Part shown: positions 14,579-36,184 of the stretch, one piece after another | Position numbering within the stretch: the stretch's first letter is position 1 | Layout of the letters: the number at the start of each line of letters is the position of its first letter | Assembly: GCF_019448235.1 (NCBI RefSeq) | Contig: NZ_CP080409.1 | Span: 3,224,001 to 3,288,000 of the forward strand | From: Nocardioides panacisoli | GTDB taxonomy: Bacteria; Actinomycetota; Actinomycetes; Propionibacteriales; Nocardioidaceae | Length of the DNA stretch: 64,000 nt | Direction of reading: 5' to 3' | Made by a program: the position numbers and the translations under genes | Notes under the pieces: generated by a model | Databases searched by the model: none | Seen by the model: the letters and a program-made list of their open reading frames with translations, nothing else | Told to the model about the DNA's origin: nothing

Positions 14579-14821
14579 ATGTCCGGCGCGCGCATCACGC
14601 TCTACACCCGCCCCGGGTGCCACCTGTGCGACGACGCCCGCCGGGTGATCGAGGACGTCTGCGCCGAGGTCGGCGCGGCGTACGACGAGGTCTCCATCGC
14701 CGACGACCCCGACCTCGAGCGCCGCTTCGGACACGAGATCCCCGTCACGTTCGTCGACGGCCGCCAGCACGACTTCTTCCGGGTCGACCCCGCTCGGCTG
14801 CGGGCCGCCCTGACGGGTTGA
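14579..14821 (+). CDS. Glutaredoxin family protein
   Basis: An 80-aa thioredoxin-fold protein with the redox motif CHLC in ITLYTRPGCHLCDDARR and a cis-proline IPVTF segment near residue 58. It would reduce disulfides in the cytosol or serve as a redox partner. Mycobacteria have a similar small gene just before hemA. The start is the ATG at 14579, since upstream codons in the frame belong to the shadow of the HAD gene. Its stop codon lies inside the first unit of the 22-bp repeat array. Confidence 0.85.
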   Translation: MSGARITLYTRPGCHLCDDARRVIEDVCAEVGAAYDEVSIADDPDLERRFGHEIPVTFVDGRQHDFFRVDPARLRAALTG

Positions 14822-14903
14822 GTCGGCACTTCCTCCCGCCGAGTGCGCACTTCGTCCCCGTCGAGTGCGCAGGAGTTGTCGGTTGAGTCGACACTCCTCG
14901 AGG
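14817..14903 (+). repeat. Array of four ~22-bp GTCGAGTC-type units
   Basis: Direct units start at 14817, 14838, 14860 and 14882. They read GTTGAGTCGGCACTTCCTCC, GCCGAGTGCGCACTTCGTCC, GTCGAGTGCGCAGGAGTTG and GTTGAGTCGACACTCCTCG. Spacing is 21-22 bp. The glutaredoxin stop codon is part of unit 1. Related arrays lie at 19732-19867 and 35074-35168. Confidence 0.75.
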
Positions 14904-14950
14904 TGTGTTCGGCCCGCTGCCCCGGCCCTCGCGGGGGCCGTCACTGGATT

Positions 14951-14979
14951 TTGTTCTCGCGTTCACAAACTCCTACAGT
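14951..14979 (+). promoter_or_regulatory. rex-hemACD promoter with overlapping Rex operator
   Basis: TTGTTC (14951-14956), a 17-nt spacer and TACAGT (14974-14979) form a good promoter. The -35 and spacer contain TTGTTCTCGCGTTCACAA (14951-14968), 15 of 18 positions identical to the Streptomyces Rex operator TTGTGAACGCGTTCACAA as I remember it. Rex would thus repress its own operon when NADH is low. Confidence 0.75.
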
Positions 14980-15030
14980 GAATCTGCCGCGGCGCCGACT
15001 GTCCGGGTGCGGCGGCTGGAGAGAAGAACG

Positions 15031-15741
15031 GTGTCCCCACGGAGTTCCCACGAGACCGCCCGGGTGATCCCGGAGGCCACGGTCGCCCGGCTCCCGGTGT
15101 ACCTGCGTGCACTCACGGGCCTGGCCGAGCAGGGCATTGCCACCTGCTCCAGTGAGGAGCTCGCGACCGCCGCCGGCGTCAACAGCGCCAAGCTCCGCAA
15201 GGACCTCTCCTACCTCGGCAGCTACGGCACCCGCGGCGTCGGGTACGACGTGGAGTACCTCCGCTACCAGATCGCCCGCGAGATCGGGGTCACCCACGAG
15301 TGGCCCGTCGTCATCGTCGGCATCGGCAACCTGGGCCACGCGCTCGCCAACTACTCCGGCTTCCGCAGCCGCGGCTTCCGCGTCGTCGCGTTGCTCGACG
15401 CCGACCCCGCCCGGCACGCCGAGATCGTCGCCGGGGTCGCCGTGCGCCCCTTCGCCGACCTCGACGCGGTCGTGCACGAGCACTCGGTCGCCATCGGCGT
15501 CATCGCCACCCCGCCGACCGCCGCCCAGGACGTGGCCGACCGGCTCGTCGAGGTGGGCATCACCAGCATCCTGAACTTCGCGCCCGGCGTGATCTCGGTG
15601 CCCGAGGGAGTGGCCGTCCGCAAGGTCGACCTCTCCATCGAGCTGCAGATCCTCGCCTACCACGAGCAGCGCAAGGCGGCCGGCGACCCCGATGCGGTCG
15701 ACCCAGCCGTGACCTTCCCCGCCGCCGGAGGTGACAAGTGA
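15031..15741 (+). CDS. rex: Redox-sensing transcriptional repressor Rex
   Basis: A 236-aa NADH/NAD+ sensing repressor. An N-terminal winged helix (VARLPVYLRALTGLAEQG, then CSSEELATAAGVNSAKLRKD) is followed by a Rossmann domain with VVIVGIGNLGHALANY near residue 93. The domain-swapped C-terminal helix contains ELQILAYHEQRK. I start at the GTG at 15031, where homology begins and GGAGAG lies upstream, although the frame is open further. It overlaps hemA by 4 nt, giving the rex-hemA-hemC-hemD order known from Streptomyces. Confidence 0.93.
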   Translation: MSPRSSHETARVIPEATVARLPVYLRALTGLAEQGIATCSSEELATAAGVNSAKLRKDLSYLGSYGTRGVGYDVEYLRYQIAREIGVTHEWPVVIVGIGNLGHALANYSGFRSRGFRVVALLDADPARHAEIVAGVAVRPFADLDAVVHEHSVAIGVIATPPTAAQDVADRLVEVGITSILNFAPGVISVPEGVAVRKVDLSIELQILAYHEQRKAAGDPDAVDPAVTFPAAGGDK

Positions 15742-17051
15742 GCGTCCTGGTCGTGGGCATCTCCCACAACTCGGCTCCCGTCGCGCTGCTGGAGCGCGTC
15801 GCGCTCGAGGAGTCCGCCGTGCCGAAGCTCGTCGAGGAGGTCGCTGCGTGCGACCACGTCAGCGAGGCCACGGTGATCTCCACCTGCAACCGGGTCGAGA
15901 TCTACACCGACGTCGACCGTTTCCACGGCAGCGTCGAGGCCCTGTCGCGCATCCTGGTCGACCGGGCCGGCGAGAGCGTCGAGGCGATGCTGCCCCACCT
16001 CTACGTCCACTACGACGACGGCGCCATCTCCCACCTGTTCCAGGTCGCCGCCGGCATGGACTCGATGGCGCTGGGCGAGGCGCAGATCCTCGGCCAGGCC
16101 CGCGAGGCGCTGCGCATCGGGCAGGAGCTCGGCACCGTCGGCCCCGCCCTGAACTCGCTGTTCCAGGAAGCGCTGCGCGTCGGCAAGCGCACCCGCGCCG
16201 AGACCGACATCGACCAGGTCGCCCCGTCGCTGGTCAGCCGCGCCCTGGAGGAGTCCCGCGAGGCGGTCGGCTCCATCGAGGGCAAGTACGTCGTCATCCT
16301 CGGCGCCGGCGCCATGGCCGGCCTCGCCACGGCGACTGCCAGCCGCGGGGGAGCGGGCCACCTCGCCATCGTCAACCGCTCCCGTGAGCGCGCCGAGCGC
16401 CTTGCCGCGGCGTACGACGGCACCCCGGTGCCGCTCAGTGGTCTCGCCGACGAGATCTCCCGCGCCGACGTGCTGATCACCTGCACCGGCTCGGCCGGCA
16501 CCGTGGTCGGGGTCGAGGCGGTCGCTGCGGCCCGTGCGACGACCCCGGAGCGGCCGCTGGTGGTCATCGACGTGGCGCTGCCGCACGACGTGGCGCCCGA
16601 GGTGGCCGACCTGCCCGGCGTCACGCTGATCGGGCTCTCCCAGCTCGCCGAGTCGCTCGAGGGCGGCGACGCCGGTGCCGAGGTGCAGGCGGTGCGCCGC
16701 ATCCTCGGCGAGGAGGTCACGGCCTTCCTGGCCGCCCGGCGTGCCTCGAGCGTGACGCCCACGGTCGTGGCGCTGCGGTCGATGGCGACGTCGGTGGTCG
16801 ACGCGGAGATGACGCGGCTGGAGAGCCGGCTGCCCGAGCTCGGCGCCACCGAGCGCGACGAGATCCGCCACGCGGTGCGCCGTGTGGCCGACAAGCTGCT
16901 GCACGAGCCCACGGTGCGGGTCAAGGAGCTGGCCAATGAGCAGGGCGCGGTCTCCTACGCGGCCGCGCTCGCCGAGCTGTTCGCCCTCGACCCCGAGGCC
17001 GTCGACGCCGTGACCCGCCCCTTCGGCGTACCCGAGGAGGAGGACCGATGA
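15738..17051 (+). CDS. hemA: Glutamyl-tRNA reductase
   Basis: A 437-aa NADPH enzyme for the first committed step of heme synthesis, glutamyl-tRNA to glutamate-1-semialdehyde. The catalytic cysteine is in [10 protein letters not shown] near residue 50, and [15 protein letters not shown] near 110 is the family signature. The NADPH domain starts at [13 protein letters not shown] and the C terminus is the helical dimer domain. The GTG start shares four bases with the rex stop, and the stop overlaps hemC, so expression should follow Rex control. Confidence 0.96.
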
Positions 17052-18064
17052 CCGACACCGCGACGCGCACGCTGCGGATCGGCACCCGGCGCAGCGAGCT
17101 GGCGCGCACCCAGTCCGAGACCGTCGCCGCGCTGCTGCGCGAGACGCTGGGCGTGGCGACCGAGCTGGTCGTCGTCTCCACCGAGGGTGACCGCACCCAG
17201 CGCGCCGGCACCCCGCTGACCGAGCTGGGCGGCGCGGGCGTCTTCGTGAGCGCGCTGCGCGAGGCACTGCTGGCCGGCGAGGTCGACGTCGCCGTCCACT
17301 CCCTCAAGGACCTGCCCACCACCCCCGAGCCGGGCATCGCGCTGGCGGCCGTCCCGTCGCGGGAGGACCCGCGCGACGCGGTCGTGGCCCGCGACGGCCT
17401 CACCCTGGGCGAGCTGCCCGCGGGCAGCGTCGTCGGCACCGGCTCGCCGCGGCGAGCCACCCAGATCCGCGCACTCGGCCTCGGTTTGGACGTGGTCGGC
17501 ATCCGTGGGAACGTCGGCACCCGGATCGAGAAGGTGCGTTCGGGGGAGTGTGACGCCGTGGTGCTGGCACGAGCCGGACTGGCCCGGACCGGGCGCCTCG
17601 AGGACGTGACCGAGGTGCTCGACCCGCTGCAGATGCTGCCGGCACCCGGACAGGGTGCGCTGGCCGTCGAGTGCCGCGCCGACGAGCCCGACCTGGTCGC
17701 CGACCTCGCCGGCATCAACGACCCCCTCACCCACGCCGCCGTGGTCGCCGAGCGCGCCACGCTCGCCACCCTCGAGGGCGGCTGCTCGGCCCCGATCGGT
17801 GCCCTCGGCGAGGTCGCCGAGGGCGAGGACGGCCCCGAGCTGTGGCTGCGCGCGGTCGTGCTCTCCGCCGACGGCGCCCTGTCCGTACGCCGCTCCGCCA
17901 CGGCCCCGCTGCCCGACACCGACCCGATCACGGCCGCCACCCACCTGGGTGACCGGCTCGCCGCCGAGCTCCTCGACGAGGGCGCCGGCGAGCTCGACAC
18001 CACCCCGTCCCCCGCGACACCGCCCGCACATCCCGCACGATCAGCAGAGGTGCACAACCGATGA
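17048..18064 (+). CDS. hemC: Porphobilinogen deaminase (hydroxymethylbilane synthase)
   Basis: A 338-aa enzyme that joins four porphobilinogens. [13 protein letters not shown] at the N terminus, [18 protein letters not shown] near residue 133 and the cofactor-binding cysteine in [10 protein letters not shown] near 243 identify it. The C terminus has an extra Pro/Thr-rich tail of about 25 residues beyond the usual end. It is coupled to hemA and hemD by ATGA overlaps. Confidence 0.96.
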
Positions 18065-19728
18065 CCGCCAAGACAGCCGCTCCGGCTGCCAAGTCCACCC
18101 GCCAGCAGACCACCCCCGGCGACGTCGCCTTCGTCGGCACCGGCCCCGGTGCGCCCGAGCTCCTCACGGTGCGTGCCACCGCGGTGATCGCGGAGGCCGA
18201 CGTCCTCATCACCGAGCTCCCCGAGCACGCCGACCTGATCGCCCACGTGCTCGGCCACGCCGCGCTCGAGGGGGAGACCGAGGACGGTCCCGAGGTGGTC
18301 GACGGCGGCTTCGGCGAGGACGGCCAGCCGCTGACCCACGCCGCCCGCGCCAAGCTCGTCGTCAAGCACGCCAAGCGCGGCCAGCGCGTCGTCCGGCTGC
18401 TCGGTGGCGACCCCTTCCTCTACGCCTCCGGCCCCGAGGAGGCCCAGGCCGTGGCCAAGGCGGGCATCACCTTCGAGGTCGTCCCGGGCGTCTCCTCGGT
18501 GGGCGCGGTCCCGGCGTACGCCGGCATCCCGCTGACGACGAAGAACCACCGCGAGGTCGCGGTCGTGACCTGTGGCGACAAGGTCGACTGGAGCCGCTAC
18601 GCGAAGGTCCCGACGCTGGTGCTGCTGTCCGCGGTCGGCCAGATCGGCGACATCGCGCGTGACCTGATCGACGCGGGTCGCAAGCCCGCGACGCCGGTCG
18701 CGATGACCCAGGTCGGCACGACGACGGAGCAGCAGACCGTCACCACGACGCTGGAGGAGGTCGCCGAGGACCCCCGCGCCGCGCGGGTCGCGCCTCCGGC
18801 GGTGATCGTGGTCGGTCAGGTCGTGGACCTGCGCGACAAGCTGTCGTGGTTCGAGACCAAGCCGATCTTCGGATGGCGCGTGCTGGTGCCGCGCACCAAG
18901 GAGCAGTCGGCCTCGCTGTCGGTCAAGGTCCGCTCCTACGGCGGCGTGCCCGAGGAGGTCCCGACGATCTCCGTCGAGCCGCCGCGCAACCCGCAGCAGA
19001 TGGACAAGGCCGTGCGCGGCCTGGTCGAGGGGCGCTACGAGTGGATCGCCTTCACCTCGGTCAACGCCGTCAAGGCGGTGCGTGAGAAGTTCGAGGAGTA
19101 CGGCCTCGACGCGCGTGCCTTCTCCGGCCTGAAGATCGCCGCGGTCGGCGAGAAGACCGCCGCGTCGCTGGCCGCGTGGGGCCTGCGGGCCGACCTGACG
19201 CCCTCGGGCGAGCAGTCGGCCGCCGGCCTGCTGGAGGACTGGCCGGAGTACGACGACGTGCTCGACCCGATCAACCGCGTCTTCCTGCCGCGGGCCGACA
19301 TCGCGACCGAGAACCTGGTCGCGGGGCTCATCGACAAGGGCTGGGAGTGCGACGACGTGACGGCGTACCGCACGGTGCGTGCTGCGCCGCCGCCGGCGCC
19401 GACGCGTGAGGCGATCAAGTCGGGCAAGTTCGACGCGGTGCTGTTCACCTCGTCCTCGACGGTGCGCAACCTGGTCGGCATCGCCGGCAAGCCGCACCCC
19501 TCGACGATCATCGCCTGCATCGGTCCGGCCACGGCCAAGACGGCCGAGGAGCACGGGCTGCGCGTCGACGTCATGGCTGCCAAGCCCGACGTCGAGGTGC
19601 TGGTCGACGGACTGGCCGACTTCGGTGCCTCCCGCCGCGCCTCGCTGCTGGAGGCCGGTGAGCCGATCACCAAGCCCTCGGACCGCAAGCCCGCCACGCG
19701 CCGCCGCCGCAAGGCCAGCGCCAAGTGA
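18061..19728 (+). CDS. hemD: Fused uroporphyrinogen-III C-methyltransferase / uroporphyrinogen-III synthase
   Basis: A 555-aa two-domain protein. Residues about 20-265 are a SUMT/CobA methyltransferase ([18 protein letters not shown], then [19 protein letters not shown]). Residues about 275-535 are a HemD synthase ([19 protein letters not shown]). The fusion would close the tetrapyrrole ring and also start the siroheme/cobalamin branch, and is usual in actinobacteria. The tail is basic ([10 protein letters not shown]). A repeat array starts 4 nt after the stop. Confidence 0.93.
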
Positions 19729-19731
19729 GGC

Positions 19732-19867
19732 GTTGAGTCTGCAGTTGTTGACCCTCGAGTCGGCACTTGTTGTCGGTGGCGGGTCGACCACTGCAGACTC
19801 ACTGCGCAACAACTGCAGACTCGACCGTGGGAACTGCAGTCTCGACGGGAAGAAGTGCCGACTCGAC
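19732..19867. repeat. Inverted array of six ~22-bp GTCGAGTC-type units
   Basis: Two plus-strand units start at 19732 (GTTGAGTCTGCAGTTGTTG) and 19754 (CTCGAGTCGGCACTTGTTG). Four minus-strand units start at 19867, 19846, 19825 and about 19803, for example GTCGAGTCTGCAGTTGTTG. Spacing is 21-22 bp. The opposing arms could fold into a long hairpin between hemD and hemB. Confidence 0.8.
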
Positions 19868-19886
19868 CGGCTGGGAGGATGGGGCC

Positions 19887-20870
19887 ATGCCTGACATCGA
19901 GGTGCCCACGATCCGGCCGCGGCGACTGCGGACCACCCCGGCGATGCGGCGGATGGTCGCGGAGACCGCCGTGCGCCCCAGTCAGCTGGTGCTGCCTGCG
20001 TTCGTGCGGGAGGGCGCCGACGAGCCGACGCCGATCGGGTCGATGCCGGGCGTCGTGCAGCACAGCCGCGACTCGCTCCGCCGCGCCGCCACCGAGGCGG
20101 CCGAGCGCGGCGTCGGCGGGCTGATGCTCTTCGGCGTTCCCGAGTCCAAGGACCCCGAGGGCAGCGGCGGGATCGACCCCGACGGCATCCTCAACGTCGC
20201 GATCGCCGAGGTGAAGGCCGAGGTCGGCGACGCCCTGGTCGTGATGAGCGACCTGTGCCTGGACGAGTTCACCGACCACGGCCACTGCGGCCTGCTCGCC
20301 CCGGACGGCACGGTCGACAACGACGCCACGCTCCGCTCGTACGCCGAGATGGCGCGCGCCCAGGCGGCCGCCGGTGTCGACATGGTCGGCCCGAGCGGGA
20401 TGATGGACGGCCAGGTGGCGGTGATCCGCACCGCGCTGGACCGGGCCGGGCACACCGACACCGGCATCCTCGCCTACGGCGCGAAGTACGCCTCGGCGTT
20501 CTACGGGCCCTTCCGGGAGGCCGTGGGCTCGACGCTGCAGGGTGACCGCCGCACCTACCAGCAGGACCCGCCCAACGCCCGTGAGGGCGTGCGGGAGGCG
20601 CAGCTCGACGTCGCCCAGGGCGCCGACATGGTGATGGTCAAGCCGGCCCTGGCCTACCTCGACGTGCTGCGGCAGGTGCGCGACGCGGTGGACGTGCCGG
20701 TGGCGGCGTACAACATCTCGGGGGAGTACGCCATGGTCGAGGCCGCCGCCGAGCGTGGGTGGATCGACCGCGAGCCGGCGATCCTGGAGACCTTGACCTC
20801 GATCCACCGCTCCGGTGCGGACGTGATCCTCACCTACTGGGCCAGCGAGGCCGCAGCGCTCCTGGCCTGA
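19887..20870 (+). CDS. hemB: Delta-aminolevulinic acid dehydratase (porphobilinogen synthase)
   Basis: A 327-aa enzyme that condenses two 5-aminolevulinates. The two Schiff-base lysines are in [16 protein letters not shown] near residue 197 and [11 protein letters not shown] near 252. The metal loop reads [14 protein letters not shown] near 125: it keeps two of the three zinc cysteines and has Asp in place of the middle one, a mix of the zinc and magnesium types. I start at the ATG at 19887 because GGGAGG lies 8 nt upstream; the frame before it runs into the repeat array. Confidence 0.95.
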
Positions 20871-20882
20871 TCGCGCGACAGG

Positions 20883-21545
20883 TCAGTTGCCGAGCCGGCT
20901 CGGCAGGCCGGTGAGTGCGTCGACCAGCGGGTCGATCACCGGCGCCAGTGGGTTGTCCGGCGCCGGCTCGTCCTCGGGCTCGTCGGGCTCCTCCGGCTCC
21001 TCGGGGGGCGGCTTCTCGGTGTCGTCACCGCCGCCACCTCCGCCGCCGGATCCACCACCGTTGCCACCGCCGGTGCCGCCCGAGCCGCCGCCCGAGCCGC
21101 CACCGGTACTGCCGCCGCCACCGTTGCGGTCGCCGTTCTCCGTGCGCCCGCCCGTGGGGGTGGTGGGCGCCTGCGGCTGGCTGGAGGGGAACGTGGGGGA
21201 CTCGAAGGTCGGCTCGGGGAAGTCGGGGTCCTCGAACGTCGGCTCGGGGAGGTCCGGGTCCTCGAACGTCGGCCGGTCCAGCTCGGTGATCTCGACCGGA
21301 AGCTCACTGGTGAGGTCCGAGGTCGGGTCGTTCACGCCGCCGGGCAGGCCGTCGAGCACGTCGAAGATGGCGTCGGGGGACTCGGTGGACTCCTCGCCGG
21401 TGCCGGCCGGGTCCGCCGTCACCTTGGCGTCGGACCCGGGACGGACCGTCCCCACCGCCCAGGCGCCGACGGCGAGCGCCACGACGACGGCCGCCATGAC
21501 GTAGAGGACGCGCGCCCGGAGCCGGCGCGCCGTGATGATGGCCAT
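20883..21545 (-). CDS. Membrane-anchored Gly-rich repeat protein, unknown function
   Basis: A 220-aa protein I do not recognise. It has a basic start, one membrane segment (residues about 13-33, VLYVMAAVVVALAVGAWAVG) and an extracellular acidic part. Three tandem copies of a motif like PTFEDPDLPE lie near residues 92-118, followed by a roughly 40-residue Gly/Ser tract and a Glu/Pro-rich stretch. The C terminus (LAPVIDPLVDALTGLPSRLG) may form a helix. It converges with hemB at a gap of only 12 nt. A candidate sigma-BldN-type promoter ends 6 nt before the ATG, suggesting a surface protein. Confidence 0.7.
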   Translation of the reverse strand: MAIITARRLRARVLYVMAAVVVALAVGAWAVGTVRPGSDAKVTADPAGTGEESTESPDAIFDVLDGLPGGVNDPTSDLTSELPVEITELDRPTFEDPDLPEPTFEDPDFPEPTFESPTFPSSQPQAPTTPTGGRTENGDRNGGGGSTGGGSGGGSGGTGGGNGGGSGGGGGGGDDTEKPPPEEPEEPDEPEDEPAPDNPLAPVIDPLVDALTGLPSRLGN

Positions 21546-21551
21546 GCTCGT

Positions 21552-21579: not shown

Positions 21580-21600
21580 GTCGTGCGCGTCACCCCGGGA

Positions 21601-21642: not shown

Positions 21643-21657
21643 ACGATTCGCGGTCGG

Positions 21658-22956
21658 TCAGCCCCGCAGGCCGTAGGACAGCAGGCACTCGGTCAGCTTG
21701 AGCTCACGCACCAGCAGCGGCTTGTCCGCCACGCTCTGCTTGCACTTGGTGCGGACCTCGTCCTTGGCCAGCGGGCCGAGCAGGCCGTCGATGAGCGCCG
21801 TCGTGACACCGCCGACGACCTCCTTGTCGACCTCCTCCACGGCGCCGCCGACGTCGCCCTTGGCGAGCTTCTCCGTCGTCTTCTTGACGCCGTCGGTGAC
21901 CTTCTTGGTGGTGTCCTTGGCGGCCTGGCCCGGGTCGTTGGAGATGACGTCGCCGCCACCGCCGTCGCCGCCGGTCTCGCCACCGGAGCCGCCGGTGCTG
22001 CCACCGGTCGAACCACCGCTGCTGGAGCCGCCGTTGCTGCCGCCGGAGGAACCGCCGCTGTTCTGCGTGGGCGGCGTGTAGCGGTCACCACCGGCGCGCG
22101 GCGGGTTGTAGGCCGGCGGCGGCTGGTAGGTCGGGTCCGGGACGATGAAGCCGCCCGCGGTGGTGGTGCCCTCGACGGCGGTGTAGTCGCCCTCGAGGTA
22201 GGCCTCCATGATGTCGAGCACCAGGTTCACGTACTCGGTGGAGTTGTTGTAGCGGAAGATCGCGCTCTTCTGGCCGGCGAGCGTGGACAGGTCGTCGTCG
22301 CCGGAGCAGAGGTAGACCGCCGCGGCCAGTGCGGCGTCGTCGATGTCCTGCGGGTTGCGCATGCCGTCGCCGTCGGCGTCCACGCCCACGACCGACCAGG
22401 TCGAGGGGATGAACTGCATCGGGCCGACCGCTCGGTCCCAGCGCTCGTCGGAGTCGTACTGGCCGGCGTCGGTGTCGGCGATCGCCTTCACGCCGCCGGT
22501 GCCGTTGAGCGCGGGGCCGTAGATGCCCGGGCTGGCCACACCGTCGCTGTCGAGCACGTTGCCGTTGACCCGGCCGTGGTTGGACTCGACCCGACCGATC
22601 GCGGCGATGAGCTGCCAGGTGATGTTGCAGCTCTCGTCGGCCTTGTTGATGACCGACTCGGCACGCTGGTACGCCGCCAGGGCGGCGGACGGGATCGCGT
22701 TGGTCGAGGACGCCGCGATCACCGACGCGCCGTTGCCGCCGGTGAGGTCGTCGGTGTTGGACAGGCTGGCCGGCGCGTCGATCGCCTCGGAGGGCACGCT
22801 GCTGCCGTCGGGCAGGTCCGGCGTGGGCTCCTCGGCGGCGGAGACGGCGGGCAGGCCGCCCATCCCGGCGACGCTGAACGTCCACGCGCCCGAGAACACG
22901 GCTGCGATGAGGATCGCGACGCCGCGCAACAGGTAGCCCTGACGCATTCTCGACAT
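21658..22956 (-). CDS. Secreted lytic murein transglycosylase with Gly/Ser linker
   Basis: A 432-aa exported protein. Residues about 10-30 (GVAILIAAVFSGAWTFSVAG) are a signal or anchor. The transglycosylase domain spans about 95-260: IGRVESNHGRVNG holds the likely catalytic Glu, followed by VGPMQFIPSTW, typical of MltB-like enzymes that cleave peptidoglycan glycan strands. Then come a Pro-rich stretch, a Gly/Ser linker of about 40 residues and a helical C-terminal domain of unknown role. I start at MSRMRQGY because GGGGAG lies upstream; the frame continues 34 codons further. A sigma-BldN-like promoter and paired palindromes lie upstream. Confidence 0.87.
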   Translation of the reverse strand: MSRMRQGYLLRGVAILIAAVFSGAWTFSVAGMGGLPAVSAAEEPTPDLPDGSSVPSEAIDAPASLSNTDDLTGGNGASVIAASSTNAIPSAALAAYQRAESVINKADESCNITWQLIAAIGRVESNHGRVNGNVLDSDGVASPGIYGPALNGTGGVKAIADTDAGQYDSDERWDRAVGPMQFIPSTWSVVGVDADGDGMRNPQDIDDAALAAAVYLCSGDDDLSTLAGQKSAIFRYNNSTEYVNLVLDIMEAYLEGDYTAVEGTTTAGGFIVPDPTYQPPPAYNPPRAGGDRYTPPTQNSGGSSGGSNGGSSSGGSTGGSTGGSGGETGGDGGGGDVISNDPGQAAKDTTKKVTDGVKKTTEKLAKGDVGGAVEEVDKEVVGGVTTALIDGLLGPLAKDEVRTKCKQSVADKPLLVRELKLTECLLSYGLRG

Positions 22957-23235: not shown

Positions 23236-23241
23236 GGCCGC

Positions 23242-29261: not shown

Positions 29262-29273
29262 TGGGGTGGGCCC

Positions 29274-29873
29274 ATGGCCCGCCTCCTCCGTGCTCTCGTC
29301 CTGGCCCCACTCGGACTCCTGCTCGCCGCCTGCGGACTCGCGGGCGGCCAGTGGCAGGCCGGTGAACCAGCCGCGGACGAGACCTGGTCGACCACGGCGA
29401 CCGAGGCGACCGAGGAACCGGTGGCGGAGTCGGGTGGCCTGACCCGCGCGCAGGTGCGGGAGGAACTCACCGGGCTCGGCTACCCCGGCAAGGCCGCCGA
29501 CTGCCTGCTCGACGACCTCGAACGCCAGGGGATCGACATCTCGCAGTACGCGTTGGAGGACTTCGCCGGCGCCGGTGCCGATCTCTACGAGGCAGCCCGC
29601 ACGGCCGGCATGGCCTGCGCCGAGCACATGGACGCCGACTCCTACGACGCCGTGCTCGGGGACGACCCGTTCGCACACCCGCAGGTCCGTGAGGAGTTCG
29701 TCCGCGGCCTCATGCTCGACCCGCAGGTCGACCGAACCCTCGCCGAATGCGTCGTGGAGCGCCTCGTCGAGATCGACGCCGACGTCTCGGCGTTCCTGGC
29801 AGCGAAGCCGGGCGACCCGGCGCTCGACCCGGTGATCGAGGCCTTCCAGCACTGCGAGGTCGCGGCAGGCTGA
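29274..29873 (+). CDS. Putative lipoprotein, unknown function
   Basis: A 199-aa protein with a lipoprotein signal ending in LLLAAC (cysteine near residue 20). A Thr/Glu-rich linker follows, then a mostly helical acidic domain from about residue 58 with four more cysteines. The part GGLTRAQVREELTGLGYPG resembles helix starts of small extracellular helical domains, but I do not recognise the family. It lies 12 nt after ccsB and could be the last gene of that operon. Confidence 0.75.
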   Translation: MARLLRALVLAPLGLLLAACGLAGGQWQAGEPAADETWSTTATEATEEPVAESGGLTRAQVREELTGLGYPGKAADCLLDDLERQGIDISQYALEDFAGAGADLYEAARTAGMACAEHMDADSYDAVLGDDPFAHPQVREEFVRGLMLDPQVDRTLAECVVERLVEIDADVSAFLAAKPGDPALDPVIEAFQHCEVAAG

Positions 29874-29894
29874 GCAGCTGACCCCGCTCGGCCC

Positions 29895-30128
29895 TCAGGA
29901 GTCCTCGGGCGGGGGGTTCTGGCGCTTCTTCTTGCGACGCTTGCGGTCCAGGTCGCGCAGGAAGTCCTCGTCGTCGTCCGGGGCGGAGGGCCGCGGCTTC
30001 GGCTTCGGCAGGACGTCGGGGAACGAGGGGCGACGGCGTACCGGGGTGTTGCCGCGCGCCTGCATGGCGCGCGTGATCAGGTAGGTCGCCACCGCGAAGA
30101 TGAGAACGACTGCCAGCACCTTGCCCAT
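29895..30128 (-). CDS. Small membrane protein with charged tail
   Basis: A 77-aa protein: one N-terminal membrane helix (residues 3-20, VLAVVLIFAVATYLITRA), a Pro-rich linker and a very charged C terminus (DEDFLRDLDRKRRKKKRQ). No known domain. Such short anchored proteins next to the DUF4229 and menA genes are common in this lineage. A TACCCT hexamer ends 6 nt before the ATG. Confidence 0.75.
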   Translation of the reverse strand: MGKVLAVVLIFAVATYLITRAMQARGNTPVRRRPSFPDVLPKPKPRPSAPDDDEDFLRDLDRKRRKKKRQNPPPEDS

Positions 30129-30134
30129 GCCCCA

Positions 30135-30140
30135 AGGGTA
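30135..30140 (-). promoter_or_regulatory. -10 element of the small membrane protein gene, leaderless type
   Basis: TACCCT on the minus strand ends 6 nt before the ATG at 30128. Confidence 0.4.
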
Positions 30141-30151
30141 GGCCGTGGGCG

Positions 30152-30185
30152 GTAACCGCGGGTGGGGTTCCCGGCAGGCGGTTAC
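30152..30185. promoter_or_regulatory. Inverted repeat between divergent promoters
   Basis: GTAACCGC (30152-30159) and GCGGTTAC (30178-30185) are perfect complements, centred 26 bp apart between the two start regions. The right arm abuts the -10 of the DUF4229 gene. It is a possible shared operator. Confidence 0.35.
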
Positions 30186-30186
30186 G

Positions 30187-30192
30187 TAGGCT
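30187..30192 (+). promoter_or_regulatory. -10 element of the DUF4229 gene, leaderless type
   Basis: TAGGCT ends 6 nt before the GTG at 30199. Confidence 0.5.
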
Positions 30193-30198
30193 GGGGCC

Positions 30199-30459
30199 GT
30201 GAAGGCTTTCTGGATCTACACCGCGATGCGGCTCGGCCTGTTTGCGGGCTCGTTCGCGATCATCTTCGGCGTCTGGTTCCTCGTCGCCGGTTCGGTGCCG
30301 ATCTTCTGGGCGGTGCTGATCGCGTTCGTCGTCAGCGGCGTGGCGTCGTTCTTCATCCTCGAGCGGCAGCGACGAGCCTTCGCGGTCCGCGTCGAGGGCC
30401 GCGCCGAGCAGGCGGCGGCGAAGTTCGACGAGCAGCGGTCCAAGGAGGACCGGGACTGA
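30199..30459 (+). CDS. DUF4229 family small membrane protein
   Basis: An 86-aa protein with two closely spaced membrane helices (LGLFAGSFAIIFGVWFLV and FWAVLIAFVVSGVASFFIL) and a basic, then mixed-charge cytoplasmic tail. The length and pattern fit DUF4229, a family often found beside menA in actinobacteria. Its function is unknown. It converges with menA with a gap of 42 nt. Confidence 0.8.
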   Translation: MKAFWIYTAMRLGLFAGSFAIIFGVWFLVAGSVPIFWAVLIAFVVSGVASFFILERQRRAFAVRVEGRAEQAAAKFDEQRSKEDRD

Positions 30460-30501
30460 TCCGGGCTCTGCCCGGCCGGTCGTCGATCGCGTCCGGTCCG
30501 C

Positions 30502-31398
30502 TCAGGCCAGGCCGAGCAGCAGCCCGGCGCTGACCAGCACGGCCCAGGCGAGCTCGGCCTGCCCGGTCTGCTGCAGCACCGGGATCAGCGACGGCCCCGA
30601 CGCGCCGCCGGTGACGATGCGCACCGCGATGACGACGAACGCGACGAAGCCCAGGCCCAGCAGGGCCCACCACGTGGTGAGCGCGGCGACGCCGATCACG
30701 GCGAGGCCGGCGAGGACCACGAGCGCGACGTAGAGGCCGCGCGTGCGCCGGTCGCCGAGGCGTACGGCGAGCGTCAGCTTGCCGGCGTCGGTGTCGGTGG
30801 GGATGTCGCGCAGGTTGTTGGCGACCAGGATCGCGCACGCCAGCGCGCCGATGCCGACGCCGGCCGCGAGCGCCGTCCACGACCACGCCTCGACCTGGAC
30901 GTAGGTGGTGCCGATGACCGCCACCAGTCCGAAGAAGACGAACACCATCACCTCGCCCAGCCCCAGGTAGCCGTACGGGCGCGAGCCGCCGGTGTAGAAC
31001 CACGCCGCCAGCACGCACACCGCGCCGACGGCCACCAGCCACCATGCGGTCGTCGCGGCCAGGACCAGGCCGGCGAGGCCGGCGACACCGAAGGCGGCGA
31101 ACGCGGCCCGCTTGACGGCGTACGGCTCGGCGAGACCGGAGCCCACCAGGCGCAGCGGTCCCACCCGGGAGTCGTCGGTGCCGCGGATGCCGTCGGAGTA
31201 GTCGTTGGCGTAGTTGACGCCGACCTGCAGCGCGAGGCTGACCAGCAGGGCCAGTAGTGCCTTCCACCAGACCGCGCCGCCGAGGTCACCGGACCGGCCG
31301 TCGTACGCCGCCACGGCGGTGCCGGCCAGCACGGGCGCGACCGCCGCGGGCAGGGTGCGGGGACGGGCGCCGGCGAGCCAATGAGCAGGGGTGGCCAT
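30502..31398 (-). CDS. menA: 1,4-dihydroxy-2-naphthoate polyprenyltransferase
   Basis: A 298-aa membrane prenyltransferase that attaches the isoprenoid tail to the menaquinone head group. The first aspartate motif is NYANDYSDGIRGTDD near residue 63 and the second is NNLRDIPTDTDAGKLTL near 190. About eight or nine hydrophobic helices are present. The start is the ATG at 31398 (MATPAHWLAGARPRTL); the frame is open far upstream but unrelated. A TTGAAT hexamer lies 6 nt before the ATG as a weak possible -10. Confidence 0.94.
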   Translation of the reverse strand: MATPAHWLAGARPRTLPAAVAPVLAGTAVAAYDGRSGDLGGAVWWKALLALLVSLALQVGVNYANDYSDGIRGTDDSRVGPLRLVGSGLAEPYAVKRAAFAAFGVAGLAGLVLAATTAWWLVAVGAVCVLAAWFYTGGSRPYGYLGLGEVMVFVFFGLVAVIGTTYVQVEAWSWTALAAGVGIGALACAILVANNLRDIPTDTDAGKLTLAVRLGDRRTRGLYVALVVLAGLAVIGVAALTTWWALLGLGFVAFVVIAVRIVTGGASGPSLIPVLQQTGQAELAWAVLVSAGLLLGLA

Positions 31399-31448
31399 GC
31401 CCGGATTCAAGCAGGCCGGCGACGGCGTCGACGCGACGGGCGGTGGGG

Positions 31449-31529
31449 TTGTCCGGTGTTCGCCTACGTTGTCGGGCAGTGCAGTGCCGGACAAGGTGGG
31501 CGATCCCCGGTCGGCCGGGGATCGCTCCC
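31449..31529. repeat. Two adjacent hairpins between menA and the AlkZ-like gene
   Basis: TTGTCCGG (31449-31456) pairs with CCGGACAA (31487-31494). Next to it, CGATCCCCGG (31501-31510) pairs with CCGGGGATCG (31515-31524) around a 4-nt loop. The second hairpin and the bases after it resemble 2991-3034. Confidence 0.6.
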
Positions 31530-31563
31530 ACCGCTGTCGGAGCCCAGTGGCAGGCTGACGGCC

Positions 31564-32604
31564 ATGCTGACCACCGACCAGGCGCTCCGGCTCCGGCTGG
31601 CCGCCCACGGACTGACCAGGCCGCTCGGGCTCGACCCGGCGGGGGTGGTCGAGCGGGCGGTGGCGCTGCAGGGGCAGGACCTGCCGGCGGTGCTGCAGGC
31701 GATCGGACTGCGGTCCGGCGAGGACGTGACCGGGGTGCGGGCGGCGTTCGACCGGGGCGAGCTGGTGCGCGGGTGGCCGATGCGCGGCACCCTGTTCGCG
31801 ACGACACCGCACTGGTTGGCGGGCCTGCTGAGCCTGACCGCGGCCCGCACCGAGCAGGCCATGGTCAAGCGCTGGGGGCACATCGGGCTCGACGAGGACA
31901 TCGTCGCGCGGTCGGCCGAGGTCGCCGCGGAGGCGATGACCGACGGTCCCCACACGCGCGCTGAGATGCTGCAGCAGTGGGAGGACGCCGGGGTCCCGAC
32001 CACGCAGGGCCGCGGCTACCACCTGATCGTGCTGCACTCGGTGCGCTCACTGTGGCACTGGGGCCCGTTCCGCGACGGCGAGCAGTGCCTGGTCGCGACG
32101 CCGCCGGTCGAGGTCGCCGCGCCGGAGGAGGTGCTCGCCGACGCCGTCGCCGGCTACGTCCGCGCCCGCGGACTCGCCACGGTCGACGACATCGCCTGGT
32201 GGACCAAGCTCCCCAAGGGGCAGGTACGCCGCGCGGTCGCGCGCTGCGTGGGTCTCGCCGAGGTCGCCGTCGCGGGCCTCGACACGGTCCACCTGGTCCA
32301 CGAGGAGGACTACGCCGCGCTGGCCGACCTCCCGCCCGCCGAGGGCGTGGTGCTGCTGCCCGGCTTCGACGAGTACTACCTCGGCCACGCCGACCGCAGC
32401 CTCGTCGCCACGCCGGCGATGCAGCAGGCCGTCGTGCCCGGCAAGAACGGTGTCTTCCGGCCGCTGGTGGTCCTGGACGGCCGGGTGGTCGCCACCTGGC
32501 GGAACACCAAGAAGGGGGCCGAGCTCGTCGACCTCGTCGAGCAGGTCCCCTCACCGCAACGCGCCGCGATCGACGCGGCGCTGGCCGAGGTGGCCACTGG
32601 GTGA
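31564..32604 (+). CDS. Winged-helix DNA-binding protein, AlkZ/YcaQ superfamily (HTH_42)
   Basis: A 346-aa protein of the HTH_42 superfamily, which includes DNA glycosylases that remove bulky alkyl adducts or unhook crosslinks (AlkZ, YcaQ). The catalytic segment of the family reads Gln-X-Gln; here VALQGQDLPAV near residue 36 has QGQ. Other landmarks are WPMRGTLFATTP near 73, LLPGFDEYYLG near 265 and the C-terminal strand RPLVVLDGRVVATWR. No secondary-metabolite cluster is nearby, so a general repair role is more likely than self-resistance. Glycosylase activity is inference. Confidence 0.8.
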   Translation: MLTTDQALRLRLAAHGLTRPLGLDPAGVVERAVALQGQDLPAVLQAIGLRSGEDVTGVRAAFDRGELVRGWPMRGTLFATTPHWLAGLLSLTAARTEQAMVKRWGHIGLDEDIVARSAEVAAEAMTDGPHTRAEMLQQWEDAGVPTTQGRGYHLIVLHSVRSLWHWGPFRDGEQCLVATPPVEVAAPEEVLADAVAGYVRARGLATVDDIAWWTKLPKGQVRRAVARCVGLAEVAVAGLDTVHLVHEEDYAALADLPPAEGVVLLPGFDEYYLGHADRSLVATPAMQQAVVPGKNGVFRPLVVLDGRVVATWRNTKKGAELVDLVEQVPSPQRAAIDAALAEVATG

Positions 32605-32612
32605 GCCTCCGA

Positions 32613-32618
32613 TAGCGT
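32613..32618 (+). promoter_or_regulatory. -10 element of the menE-menC-menD operon, leaderless type
   Basis: TAGCGT ends 7 nt before the GTG at 32626. Confidence 0.5.
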
Positions 32619-32625
32619 CGGTGCC

Positions 32626-33633
32626 GTGGAGGACGTCAGCCCGCGCGGCACCCCGGACGAGGTCGTGGCCCAGTTGCGCGACTGGCTCGCCGGCCCCGAC
32701 CGGCCCCTCGTCGTGGAGACCTCCGGCTCGACCGGTGCCCCCAAACGGGTCCGCCTGCCCCGCGCCGCCGTCCTCGCCTCCGTCGCCGCGAGCGCGCAGC
32801 GCCTCGGCGCCACCGGCCCGTGGGTGCTGGCGCTGCCGCCGACCTACGTCGCCGGCATCCAGGTCGTTGTCCGCTCACTGGTCGCCGGTCACGAGCCCGT
32901 CCTCCTCCAACGCGACGGGTGGCCGGACGGTGCGGGATGGTTCGTGTCGCTGGTGCCCACCCAGCTGCACCGCATGCTCGCCGACGGCCGTGACCGTGCG
33001 GCGTTGGCCCGCGCCCACACCGTCCTGCTCGGCGGCGGCCCCATCGATCCCGGGCTCCGCACGGCGGCGGAGGAGGCCGGCGTACGGATCGTGGCGACGT
33101 ACGGCGCCGCCGAGACCGCTGGCGGATGCGTCTACGACGGGGTGCCGCTGGACGGTGTCGCCGTCGCGTTGGGCGAGTCCGGCCGGATCCGGATCGGCGG
33201 GCCGACGCTGTTCTCCGGCTACGCCGACGACCCGTTGCTGACCGACAAGGCGCTGCTCGACGGCTGGTTCCACACCTTTGATGCCGGCCGCTTCGACGAG
33301 GACGGACGGCTGCAGGTGCTCGGCCGGGTCGACGACGTCGTCGTCTCCGGCGGGCTCAACGTGCCGGCGCCGGCCGTCGCCGCCCGGCTGCGCGCCCACC
33401 CCGACCTCGCCGCCGCCGAGGTGCTCGGCATCCCCGACGAGGAGTGGGGCCACCGGGTCGTCGCGTTCGTGGTCGGCCACGCCACCGGGCTCGACGACCT
33501 GCGCGACTGGGTCGCGGCCGCGCACCCGCGGTCGTGGGCGCCGCGGCAGGTCGTCGCCCTCGACGCGATCCCCGAACTGCCCAACGGCAAGCCCGACCGC
33601 CGGGCCCTGCGCGCCCTCGCGGAGCAGCCGTGA
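32626..33633 (+). CDS. menE: o-Succinylbenzoate--CoA ligase
   Basis: A 335-aa short acyl-CoA synthetase that activates o-succinylbenzoate in menaquinone synthesis. The ATP-binding loop is ETSGSTGAPKRV near residue 33, followed by YGAAETAGGCVYDG near 160, FDAGRFDEDGRLQVLGRVDD near 223 and the C-terminal lysine region LPNGKPDRRALR. It is shorter than typical 450-500-aa MenE at the N terminus, as usual for actinobacteria. The stop overlaps the menC start by 4 nt. Confidence 0.9.
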   Translation: MEDVSPRGTPDEVVAQLRDWLAGPDRPLVVETSGSTGAPKRVRLPRAAVLASVAASAQRLGATGPWVLALPPTYVAGIQVVVRSLVAGHEPVLLQRDGWPDGAGWFVSLVPTQLHRMLADGRDRAALARAHTVLLGGGPIDPGLRTAAEEAGVRIVATYGAAETAGGCVYDGVPLDGVAVALGESGRIRIGGPTLFSGYADDPLLTDKALLDGWFHTFDAGRFDEDGRLQVLGRVDDVVVSGGLNVPAPAVAARLRAHPDLAAAEVLGIPDEEWGHRVVAFVVGHATGLDDLRDWVAAAHPRSWAPRQVVALDAIPELPNGKPDRRALRALAEQP

Positions 33634-34580
33634 AGGTGGTCTCGATCGGCCTGCGGACCCGGTTCCGCGGCATCACCACCCGCGAGGCCGCCCTCGTCGA
33701 GGGCCCGGCCGGCTGGGGGGAGTGGAGCCCCTTCCTGGAGTACGACGCCGCCGTCGCGGCGCCGTGGCTGCGCTGCGCCGAGGAGGCCGCCGCCGGCGAC
33801 TGGCCCGCGCCGGTGCGCGACCGGGTGCCGGTCAACGTCACCGTCCCCGCCGTCGACCCCGCCACGGCCCACCGCATCGTCACCGACGGCGGCTGCCGCA
33901 CCGCCAAGGTCAAGGTCGGCGAACGCGGGCAGTCGCTCGCGGAGGACCAGGCCCGGCTCGAGGCAGTCCGCGACGCCCTCGGCACGGCCGGCCACGTCAG
34001 GATCGACGCCAACGGTGCGTGGGGCGTCGACGACGCGGCGTCCGCCATCGCCCTGCTCGACCGCGCCGCCGGCGGTCTGGAGTACGTCGAGCAGCCCTGC
34101 GCCACCGTCGAGGAGCTGGCCGCGTGCCGCCGCCGCGTCGAGGTGCCGATCGCCGCGGACGAGTCGATCCGCCGCGCCGAGGACCCCTACCGGGTGCGCG
34201 ACCTCGCCGCCGCCGACATCGCCGTGCTGAAGGTGCAGCCGCTGGGTGGTGTCCGCGCCTGCCTCGAGATCGCCGAGCAGATCCAGCTGCCGGTGGTGGT
34301 GTCCTCGGCGCTGGAGACCTCCGTCGGGCTGGCCGCCGGCGTGGCGCTCGCGGCGGCGCTCCCGGAGCTGCCGCACGCGTGCGGGCTCGCGACCGGCCAG
34401 CTGCTCACCGACGACGTCGTCGACGAGCCGCTGCTCCCGGTCGATGGTGCGCTGCCGGTCGTGCGGCCCAGCGTCGACCCGGCCGCACTCGAGCGGTGTG
34501 CCGCTGCACCGGACCGCGTGGCGCACTGGCAGGCGAGACTGCACGCAGTGCAGGCCCTGGGGCAGGATCGACTCCCGTGA
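33630..34580 (+). CDS. menC: o-Succinylbenzoate synthase
   Basis: A 316-aa enolase-superfamily dehydratase. Catalytic features are visible: TAKVKV with the Lys pair near residue 94, metal ligands in RIDANGAWG near 126, EQPC near 155 and ADES near 178, and the second lysine in AVLKVQPLGG near 200. It makes o-succinylbenzoate for MenE. The GTG at 33630 overlaps menE and its stop overlaps menD, giving menE-menC-menD coupling. Confidence 0.93.
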   Translation: MKVVSIGLRTRFRGITTREAALVEGPAGWGEWSPFLEYDAAVAAPWLRCAEEAAAGDWPAPVRDRVPVNVTVPAVDPATAHRIVTDGGCRTAKVKVGERGQSLAEDQARLEAVRDALGTAGHVRIDANGAWGVDDAASAIALLDRAAGGLEYVEQPCATVEELAACRRRVEVPIAADESIRRAEDPYRVRDLAAADIAVLKVQPLGGVRACLEIAEQIQLPVVVSSALETSVGLAAGVALAAALPELPHACGLATGQLLTDDVVDEPLLPVDGALPVVRPSVDPAALERCAAAPDRVAHWQARLHAVQALGQDRLP

Positions 34581-36184
34581 CCGACGCGACCACCCTGGCC
34601 CGGACCACGCTCGAGCGGCTCCTCGCGGCCGGCGTCACCGACGTCGTCGTGGCGCCCGGCTCCCGCAACGCCCCGCTCGCATTCGCGACCTGGCAGGCCG
34701 ACCGTGCCGGCGCGCTGCGACTCCACACCCGCATCGACGAGCGCTCCGCAGGCTTCCTCGCCGTCGGCCTCACCAAGGTCGGCGCCCGGGCGGCGGTCCT
34801 CTGCACCTCCGGTACGGCGGTCGCCAACCTCCACCCCGCCGCCCTCGAGGCCGCCCACACCGGACTCGGCGTCGTGTTCGTGACCGCGGACCGCCCCGCC
34901 CGCCTCCGGGGGACCGGCGCCAACCAGACGACCGACCAGCGTGGCGCCTTCGGGTCGCTGGTGACGGCGTACGACGTCGCGACGGAGGCAGACCTGCCCC
35001 CGGTGGCCGACCTCCGCGGCGACCGGCCGACCCACCTCAACGTCCAGCTCGACGACCCGCTCGTGCCCGAGGCGTCGAGTGGTGAGTTGTTGCCGGTCGA
35101 GTCCGCAGGAGTGGTCGCCCCGGAGCGCAAGAAGTCACGACTCGACGGTGAACAACTCACGACTCGACTCGGTGCCGGCCCGCGGACCGTGGTCGTGGCC
35201 GGTGACGAGGCCGGCCCCCCGGCCCGGGTGCTCGCCCAGGACGCGCAGTGGCCGCTGCTCGCCGAGCCCAGCAGCGGGTCGCGGACCGGGGCCAACGCCA
35301 TCCGCACCTACCGCCTCCTCCTGGCCGGCGAGCTCGGCGCGGCCATCGAGCGGGTCGTGGTCGTCGGCCGTCCCACGCTCTCGCGGCCCGTCGCGCGGCT
35401 GCTGGCGCGCGAGGACGTCGAGGTGCTCGTCGTCCCCGGCCGCGGCGTCTGGCCCGTGCGACCACCGCTGGCCACGCTGCTCGACCACGTCCCCACCGCC
35501 GAGCCCGACGACGGCATCTGGCTCGCCGCCTGGCAGGAGGCCGACCGCACCACCGGACGTCGCCTCGACGCACTGCTCGCCGAGCAGCCCGCGCTGACGG
35601 CGTACGACGTCGCGGCGGCGACCTTCGCGGCCCTGCCCGCCGGCGGCCTGCTCATGGTGGGCGCCTCCAGCCCGATACGCGACCTCGACCTGGTCGCCCG
35701 GCCGGCCCCGGTCGGCGAGCGCCGCAAGGTCATCGCCAACCGCGGTCTCGCCGGCATCGACGGCACCGTCAGCACCGCCGTCGGGGCCGCACTCGGGCGA
35801 CCCGCCTCCACGCGCAACCTCGCGCTGCTGGGCGACCTGACCTTCCTCCACGACCAGAACGGCCTCGTGCTCGGTCCGCACGAGCCGCGGCCCGACCTGA
35901 CGATCGTGGTGCCCAACGACGACGGTGGCGCCATCTTCTCCCTGCTCGAGCAGGGTGCACCGGCACACGCCGACGCCTTTGAACGGCTCTTCGGCACCCC
36001 GACCGGCGCCGACCTCGCCAGCGCCTGTGCAGCGACCCGGACGCCCCACCTCCGGGTGGCGTCACGCCCCGAACTCGAGCAGGCACTCGCCAGCCCCAAC
36101 GGCGGCATCGAGGTCGTCGAGGCCACCGTCGGCCGCGCCGACCGCCGCGCGCTGGACGCGGCGATCCGCGACCTCGTCGACTGA
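34577..36184 (+). CDS. menD: 2-Succinyl-5-enolpyruvyl-6-hydroxy-3-cyclohexene-1-carboxylate synthase
   Basis: A 535-aa thiamine diphosphate enzyme that joins isochorismate and 2-oxoglutarate. The N-terminal domain has VVVAPGSRNAPLAFA near residue 24 and the glutamate-containing RIDERSAGFLAVGL. The C-terminal domain has ANRGLAGIDGTVSTAVGAAL near 390 and LLGDLTFLHDQNGL near 417, the ThDP/Mg site. Residues about 167-198 are encoded by a 95-bp inverted repeat array (35074-35168), in the linker between domains I and II, and the frame stays open. Confidence 0.94.
   Translation: MTDATTLARTTLERLLAAGVTDVVVAPGSRNAPLAFATWQADRAGALRLHTRIDERSAGFLAVGLTKVGARAAVLCTSGTAVANLHPAALEAAHTGLGVVFVTADRPARLRGTGANQTTDQRGAFGSLVTAYDVATEADLPPVADLRGDRPTHLNVQLDDPLVPEASSGELLPVESAGVVAPERKKSRLDGEQLTTRLGAGPRTVVVAGDEAGPPARVLAQDAQWPLLAEPSSGSRTGANAIRTYRLLLAGELGAAIERVVVVGRPTLSRPVARLLAREDVEVLVVPGRGVWPVRPPLATLLDHVPTAEPDDGIWLAAWQEADRTTGRRLDALLAEQPALTAYDVAAATFAALPAGGLLMVGASSPIRDLDLVARPAPVGERRKVIANRGLAGIDGTVSTAVGAALGRPASTRNLALLGDLTFLHDQNGLVLGPHEPRPDLTIVVPNDDGGAIFSLLEQGAPAHADAFERLFGTPTGADLASACAATRTPHLRVASRPELEQALASPNGGIEVVEATVGRADRRALDAAIRDLVD
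35074..35168. repeat. Inverted array of four 22-bp GTCGAGTC-type units inside menD
   Basis: Plus-strand units start at 35074 (GTCGAGTGGTGAGTTGTTG) and 35096 (GTCGAGTCCGCAGGAGTGG). Minus-strand units start at 35168 (GTCGAGTCGTGAGTTGTTC) and 35146 (GTCGAGTCGTGACTTCTTG). Spacing is exactly 22 bp on both strands. The whole array is translated. Confidence 0.82.

What the first reader, a model, noticed from the sequence alone, without database searches (positions are those of the whole stretch)
14817..35168. Family of ~22-bp units (GTCGAGTC core) in tandem or inverted arrays at three loci
Arrays at 14817-14903, 19732-19867 and 35074-35168 share a unit close to GTYGAGTCNGCASTTSTTS repeated every 21-22 bp. 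Array 1 has four direct units, array 2 two forward and four reverse, array 3 two forward and two reverse. Two lie beside redox/heme genes and one inside a menaquinone gene. They are too regular to be chance and are not CRISPR, since units abut without unique spacers. I know of no described element with this layout.
Basis: partly seen in the sequence, partly recalled or inferred. Interest (0 to 1): 0.78.

Follow-up and report, generated by a model that had tools for sequence, protein, structure and literature searches.

The report
Nuclease-linked dispersed 22-bp DNA repeat arrays
These short repeat blocks are scattered through a soil bacterium's genome, mostly right behind genes, and appear to belong to a DNA-cutting protein whose own gene is framed by the same repeats; related bacteria have the same arrangement, usually with a different repeat 'spelling' for each copy of the protein.

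Summary
The three arrays are real and belong to at least 21 arrays (95 units) in this 3.57-Mb Nocardioides genome, forward, reverse, or forward-then-reverse. Of 17 arrays outside genes, 16 lie within about 13 bp of a stop codon, some supplying it; four lie in frame inside genes. The redox/heme setting is incidental.

The key lies outside the window. One array pair brackets a gene for an AbiEi-like DNA-binding domain fused to a Vsr-like nuclease. Across the genus, 77 of 90 homologous genes examined have a 20-23-bp periodic array in at least one flank (menD control 1 of 29), mostly with their own unit 'dialect'. Dialects read off gene flanks recur as dispersed arrays in the carrying genomes: two in none of the 29 or 28 other genomes searched, a third with only scattered hits elsewhere. 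Two sister species share 11 array sites and differ at 7. In Gordonia, a genus of another family, 19 of the 20 best homologs have 20-22-bp arrays too.

Best reading: a REP/RAYT-like system run by a non-homologous enzyme. The gene-array association is shown; unit binding is likely; how arrays spread is inferred. I found no description in the literature searched.

The parts
14817..14903 (+). Array 1: four forward units (14817-14835, 14838-14856, 14860-14878, 14882-14900). The glutaredoxin-like gene 14555-14821 ends in the TGA inside the first unit (GT-TGA-GTC). The next gene (15064-15741; Pfam pair read by me as Rex) starts 163 bp on.
19732..19775 (+). Array 2, forward block: units at 19732 and 19754, starting 3 bp after the stop of the TP_methylase/HemD-domain gene 18061-19728.
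19790..19867 (-). Array 2, reverse block: reverse units 19807-19825 and 19849-19867 (pattern), about 19828-19846 and a truncated 19790-19801 (by eye). The ALAD-family (hemB) gene 19887-20870 starts 19 bp on.
35074..35117 (+). Array 3, forward block: units at 35074 and 35096, in frame inside menD (34577-36184).
35128..35168 (-). Array 3, reverse block: units at 35128 and 35150. With the forward block it encodes part of the variable linker of MenD; the frame stays open.
34577..36184 (+). menD, host gene of array 3 (535 aa; Pfam TPP_enzyme_N, MenD by my reading and by one match per genome in most of the genus).

Best explanation
The arrays are non-autonomous members of a dispersed repeat family whose cognate enzyme is the AbiEi-Vsr fusion protein encoded at 987,179-988,096 of this genome (305 aa, called P0002 here), itself bracketed by a four-unit forward and a three-unit reverse array. 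SHOWN by comparison: genes of this protein family are bracketed by inverted 21-22-bp arrays in two genera; different gene copies mostly have different unit dialects; in the genomes tested, a gene's dialect is the one dispersed in that genome; in this genome arrays sit at 3' ends of genes; two sister species differ in which sites are occupied. LIKELY: the AbiEi-like winged-helix part binds one unit (relatives of it bind 23-bp inverted repeats), so an array is a row of binding sites spaced about two helical turns apart, and head-to-head blocks can form a long hairpin or cruciform. INFERRED: the Vsr-like nuclease nicks or cuts at such bound or folded arrays, and repair by gene conversion or template switching copies units, changes their number, seeds new arrays and keeps the dialect uniform, while the enzyme gene stays at a few inherited positions, as RAYT genes do. 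Arrays survive where they do little harm: just behind stop codons and in protein linkers.
Against: No biochemistry: neither binding nor cutting of a unit by this protein is shown. No target-site duplication was evident at seven occupied/empty pairs, and gain could not be told from loss; one 'empty' site (L358) keeps a unit-like remnant. The correlation of protein and unit divergence (Mantel r 0.39, 0 of 2000 permutations) is not corrected for shared ancestry. 13 of 90 genus loci fail the periodicity threshold, among them the second homolog of this genome (L317). Outside the genus only 2 of 29 distant homologs of the phylum sample had clear bracketing arrays. The reversed control also hits in 15 genomes, in some more often than the pattern (G166 22 against 7); in 3 of 12 loci checked such hits lie on the arrays themselves, the rest is unexplained. 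Whether every genome with a bracketed gene also has dispersed arrays was not tested.
Confidence: 0.7

Rival explanations
1. Autoregulation plus regulon: the fusion protein is a transcription regulator that, like AbiEi, binds operator repeats at its own gene; the dispersed arrays are its other regulatory sites, acting as terminators, roadblocks or 3'-UTR/5'-UTR elements of the genes beside them.
For: AbiEi-type proteins bind 23-bp inverted repeats at their own promoters (PMC7319586 passages). Arrays flank the gene itself. The three window arrays fold better than shuffles (z -2.49, -3.52, -3.82). Six of the 17 non-coding arrays lie between co-directional genes and so also upstream of a gene, for example 19 bp before hemB.
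Against: Ten of the 17 lie between convergent genes, only one between divergent genes (my count on my own gene calls); neighbours have no common function; four arrays lie inside coding sequence; an invariant nuclease site is unnecessary for a regulator; sites differ between sister species.
Confidence: 0.15
2. Passive repeats: the arrays are hairpin-prone repeats that spread by ordinary recombination, and the nuclease gene is merely one of the places where they landed.
For: No target-site duplication evident; unit numbers differ between orthologous arrays.
Against: 77 of 90 homologs against 1 of 29 control loci carry flanking arrays; paralogs in one genome have different dialects; the same bracketing in Gordonia.
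Confidence: 0.05
3. Defence or conflict system: the nuclease attacks DNA entering the cell, and the chromosomal arrays are decoys or self-marks that occupy or restrain it (an addiction-like arrangement).
For: Domains come from a toxin-antitoxin antitoxin and from the Vsr/DUF559 group, for which conflict roles are proposed (PMC3710099 passages). A DUF559 Vsr-like protein of Caulobacter can damage its own chromosome when methylation is lost (PMC12907096 passages). Dialects change between species at the same locus.
Against: No AbiEii partner among the neighbours scanned in this genome. No phage or plasmid record matched array 2 by blastn, though only this one dialect was tried. Sister species differ in occupied sites.
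Confidence: 0.1

Closest known systems
REP/REPIN elements and RAYT (TnpA-REP) transposases
   Same: Short repeats, mostly extragenic and between convergent or co-directional genes; some inside genes; enzyme gene flanked by its own repeat class; cognate classes with species-specific characters (PMC3733652 passages; PMC3686654 abstract).
   Different: RAYTs are HUH/Y1 enzymes; none (PF01797) was found in this genome. Here the enzyme is an AbiEi-Vsr fusion, the units are 21-22-bp tandem repeats, and they lack the GTAG or CGTC tag of REPs.
AbiE type IV toxin-antitoxin antitoxin AbiEi / Rv2827c
   Same: The N-terminal 190 residues match AbiEi by Pfam, PADLOC and fold; AbiEi proteins bind 23-bp inverted repeats next to their own gene, and here 22-bp repeats flank the gene.
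   Different: C-terminal nuclease domain, no AbiEii partner gene next to it in this genome; repeats dispersed over the genome.
Vsr / DUF559 nucleases and homing endonuclease I-Bth0305I
   Same: Fold of the C-terminal domain and invariant acidic/His residues.
   Different: Fused to an AbiEi-like domain and linked to repeat arrays.
Tn7/Mu-type transposon ends with several about 22-bp binding sites (recalled, no call)
   Same: Several ordered binding sites at element ends, inverted at the two ends.
   Different: No transposase among the neighbours scanned (the genome was not searched for DDE enzymes); no target-site duplication evident; the arrays themselves are the dispersed unit.

Membership tests
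REP/RAYT (REPtron) | Y1/HUH transposase in the genome, flanked by the repeats | tested here: not met
   PF01797: 0 matches in G000; the same search rings in 5 of 14 control genomes. Other genomes not searched.
REP/RAYT (REPtron) | Repeat is a short palindrome tagged GTAG or CGTC at one end | tested here: not met
   Units start GTYGAG and end ASTTSTTS; no GTAG/CGTC tag; tags from PMC3733652 (passages)
REP/RAYT (REPtron) | Dispersed repeats whose class matches the repeats flanking the enzyme gene | tested here: met
   for three dialects (four genomes) and for this genome; but with another enzyme
CRISPR array | Repeats separated by unique spacers of similar length | tested here: not met
   Units abut with 2-3 nt between them
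AbiE type IV toxin-antitoxin system | AbiEi-like DNA-binding protein | tested here: met
AbiE type IV toxin-antitoxin system | Adjacent AbiEii nucleotidyltransferase toxin gene | tested here: not met
   In G000 the neighbours are a SpoU methylase and an alpha/beta hydrolase; other genomes not checked
DUF559 / MTES_1575 Vsr-like nucleases | Vsr-like fold with the conserved acidic/His residues | tested here: met
   (DUF559 above, MTES_1575 below its cut-off)
MITE / insertion-sequence derivative | Target-site duplication at insertion | tested here: inconclusive
   None evident by eye at seven occupied/empty pairs
Homing endonuclease | Cuts an empty site and is copied into it | not testable with these tools
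   Only fold similarity to I-Bth0305I

The most novel reading that the evidence does not exclude
A second, independent class of bacterial repeat-plus-cognate-enzyme systems: AbiEi-Vsr nucleases that recognise, copy and homogenise arrays of 21-22-bp units, with recognition specificity that has switched many times at fixed gene positions, so that one genome can carry several mutually orthogonal gene-dialect pairs.
Probability: 0.6. Interest if true: 0.95.

Novelty: categorically new. Interest (0 to 1): 0.88.

Why it matters
To my knowledge RAYT/REP is the standard example of a domesticated bacterial enzyme paired with dispersed short repeats. A non-homologous enzyme with the same genomic logic would show that this arrangement arose more than once. 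It would also suggest a function for a large group of proteins that databases list as 'DUF559' or 'AbiEi antitoxin' (at least 1742 relatives of one query at E <= 0.001; how many are bracketed by arrays is unknown beyond the loci examined), and it offers dozens of natural protein-DNA specificity pairs, many at the same locus. How REP-like repeats spread becomes testable in a system with clear differences between sister species.

Full report
OBSERVATION. The three arrays are present as described. In the whole genome (G000, one contig, 3,565,529 bp) it has 57 forward and 48 reverse matches, against 20 and 21 for the reversed control. With the centre left free (GTCGAGTNNNNACTTSTTS, 1 mismatch) the genome has 26 + 21 against 0 + 0, while the 57 other genomes of that call have 0-8 hits each and controls of 0-9. 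Twenty stretches around places listed (17 gave arrays, 3 did not) plus the window give 21 arrays with 95 units at <=4 mismatches. The number is a minimum.

ANATOMY. A unit is GTYGAGT-NNNN-ASTTSTTS plus 2-3 nt, period 21-22 bp. Arrays are forward only, reverse only, or forward then reverse. The three window arrays fold as single-stranded DNA better than shuffles (z -2.49, -3.52, -3.82). By my own gene caller, 17 arrays lie outside genes (10 between convergent, 6 between co-directional, 1 between divergent genes, my count) and four lie inside open frames, which they do not interrupt. Of the 17, 16 have an edge within about 13 bp of a stop codon, again my count. In the same stretches 1,604 of 17,307 intergenic bases (9.3%) lie that near, so about 18% of arrays would by chance on two edges (the 18% is my arithmetic). 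At seven gene ends the stop codon lies inside the outermost unit (GT-TGA-G); array 1 is one of them. Outermost units have T at position 3 in 20 of 34 cases, inner units in 11 of 61 (Fisher p 8e-5). The genes scanned around 11 of the 21 arrays have no common function.

THE ASSOCIATION IS GENERAL. Homologs (E <= 0.001) occur in 212 of 215 genomes of the genus. The genus is Nocardioides: the G206 protein L163 is identical to P0069 of Nocardioides sp. BP30. I examined 90 homolog loci: the 30 best, the next 40 in rank, and 20 of 37-49% identity picked from the lists before their flanks were seen. A motif-free test (self-identity at lag 20-23, >=30 of 44, 400-bp flanks) is passed in at least one flank by 25 of 30, 34 of 40 and 18 of 20, against 1 of 29 menD loci (L153, from the values). 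At the stricter >=32 it is 23 of 30 against 0 of 29. In gene orientation the 5' flank carries forward units and the 3' flank reverse units, the innermost often ending in the gene's own stop codon. The other homolog of this genome that I examined (936,181; 37% identity, L317) has no such array by this test.

ONE GENE, ONE DIALECT. Units keep roughly [GC]NYGA at the start, partly because my finder was anchored there, and differ in the rest. Consensus units could be made for 81 of 90 loci, for both flanks of 58. Over positions 7-20, 5' and 3' consensus of one gene agree at 0.77, those of different genes at 0.38; the own 3' consensus is the best match, ties included, for 46 of 58. Paralogs in one genome have different dialects (for example G206, G118, G002). 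Genes with the same downstream neighbour in different species (clusters of 12, 11, 8, 5, 5 and 5 loci) mostly have different dialects, though some members share one, such as L169 and L188 of the sister genomes. Protein and unit distances correlate (Mantel r 0.39, n 81, 0 of 2000 permutations as high; residues 70-190 r 0.41), without correction for phylogeny.

PREDICTION TEST. I read units off gene flanks and searched 30 genomes, each carrying a top homolog. G141's unit: 35 copies in G141, 0 in the other 29. G154/G173's unit: 42 and 51 copies, 0 in the other 28. G119's unit: 43 copies in G119; the others have 0-9 scattered hits each, mostly at 3 mismatches, somewhat above the reversed control of 0-3. 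G119 also carries a second bracketed gene whose different dialect is dispersed too. In the genus-wide search with a two-unit form of this genome's pattern, 31 of 215 genomes match. That count is not clean: the reversed control hits in 15 genomes, in four of them (G034, G165, G166, G208) about twice to three times as often as the pattern. In 3 of 12 loci checked the control hits lie on the arrays in another register.

TURNOVER. G154 and G173 are sisters (83-92% identity in the aligned stretches). Ten dispersed-array stretches and the gene locus align between them, and an eleventh site (L269/L365) proved occupied in both. Seven sites are occupied in one and lack an array in the other: two only in G154 (L260, L268), five only in G173 (L272, L337, L339, L346, L347). 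For L341 and L342 no orthologous flank was found. At L268 the empty site reads as the two outer ends of the array joined, which fits insertion or excision equally; at L337 the empty site keeps a unit-like remnant. No target-site duplication was evident by eye. Units within 2 mismatches of the core make up 55 of 66 (G154) and 79 of 93 (G173) at <=5 mismatches. In the units chosen at <=2 mismatches, position 18 is C in 52 of 55 units of G154 but split 36 G / 35 C among 77 of G173, a shift shared by many arrays.

BEYOND THE GENUS. In 396 genomes drawn from the phylum, 121 including this one have a match; the others listed are at 42% identity or less. Of 29 such loci, 6 passed a looser periodicity test and 2 are clearly bracketed by inverted arrays: L242 (21-bp units) and L228 (37-38-bp period). 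The genus of L242 is Gordonia, by a 99%-identical and other named proteins. There, 59 of 59 genomes have a match, and 19 of the 20 best loci have 20-22-bp arrays with their own dialects (lags 18-25 tested; the miss, L383, and L385 and L388 have cut-off flanks; no menD-type control was run there). Of the next 10 loci, 3 are fragments of close homologs and pass; of the 7 distant paralogs 1 passes, with an 18-bp repeat.

MECHANISM. Characterised AbiEi proteins bind 23-bp inverted repeats near their own genes and two of them did not bind each other's repeats (PMC7319586, passages). So the unit is most likely the binding site of the AbiEi-like part. The Vsr-like part would nick or cut there, and repair would copy or delete units; this step is inference. 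The genomic logic is that of RAYT/REP (PMC3733652 passages; PMC3686654 abstract), but the enzyme is unrelated and the RAYT family was not found here.

MENAQUINONE GENE. Array 3 encodes part of a MenD linker. The 19 correctly read orthologs have unrelated linkers there, of 32-45 aa against 39 in the 14 measured plainly; in the other five the measuring pattern caught an earlier motif. This looks like a tolerated place rather than a regulatory one.

LITERATURE. Ten searches of the open-access library, judged from their listings, showed no paper that links DUF559, MTES_1575 or AbiEi proteins to repeat arrays or describes such repeats in Nocardioides or Gordonia. Of five papers I saw passages or the abstract only. 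Most subscription papers and bioRxiv preprints are not held, so this is no proof of novelty.

Noticed in passing
L317 (G000:C1:935281-937920): The homolog of this genome without 22-bp arrays is flanked on both sides by a different palindromic repeat, about GCCGAGTCGGCGCCAACTCGGC.
   Followed up: no
L271:2520-3074: A MarR-like gene of G173 (by eye) runs into a reverse array, which adds a repetitive C-terminal tail (QTPTRGSQTPTRG) to the protein.
   Followed up: no
L272:2000-3242 versus L356: A 1.2-kb block with a 372-aa ORF between forward and reverse arrays is present in G173 and absent at the same place in G154.
   Followed up: partly
L150, L157 (menD of G154, G173); L125: The MenD linker of some relatives carries peptides (VELVETA, RGAPATSLE) that look translated from another dispersed repeat; L125 shows GGTCTCGATACGCTCGCTGGCGCTCGCTACTCGACC repeats.
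   Followed up: no
window 21186-21273 and 21985-22060: Two tandem repeats of 30 and 39 bp, different from this unit.
   Followed up: no
L228 (G297): A homolog of another family bracketed by inverted arrays with a 37-38-bp period, core GATCATGCARTCCCGCCACC.
   Followed up: partly
L111 (G111) and L112 (G118): Other Nocardioides species have arrays close to this genome's dialect (GCCGAGTCAGCAGTTGTTG; GTCGAGTCGGCACTTCGTG).
   Followed up: no
G034, G165, G166, G208: The reversed two-unit pattern hits these genomes more often than the pattern itself; the cause was not found.
   Followed up: partly
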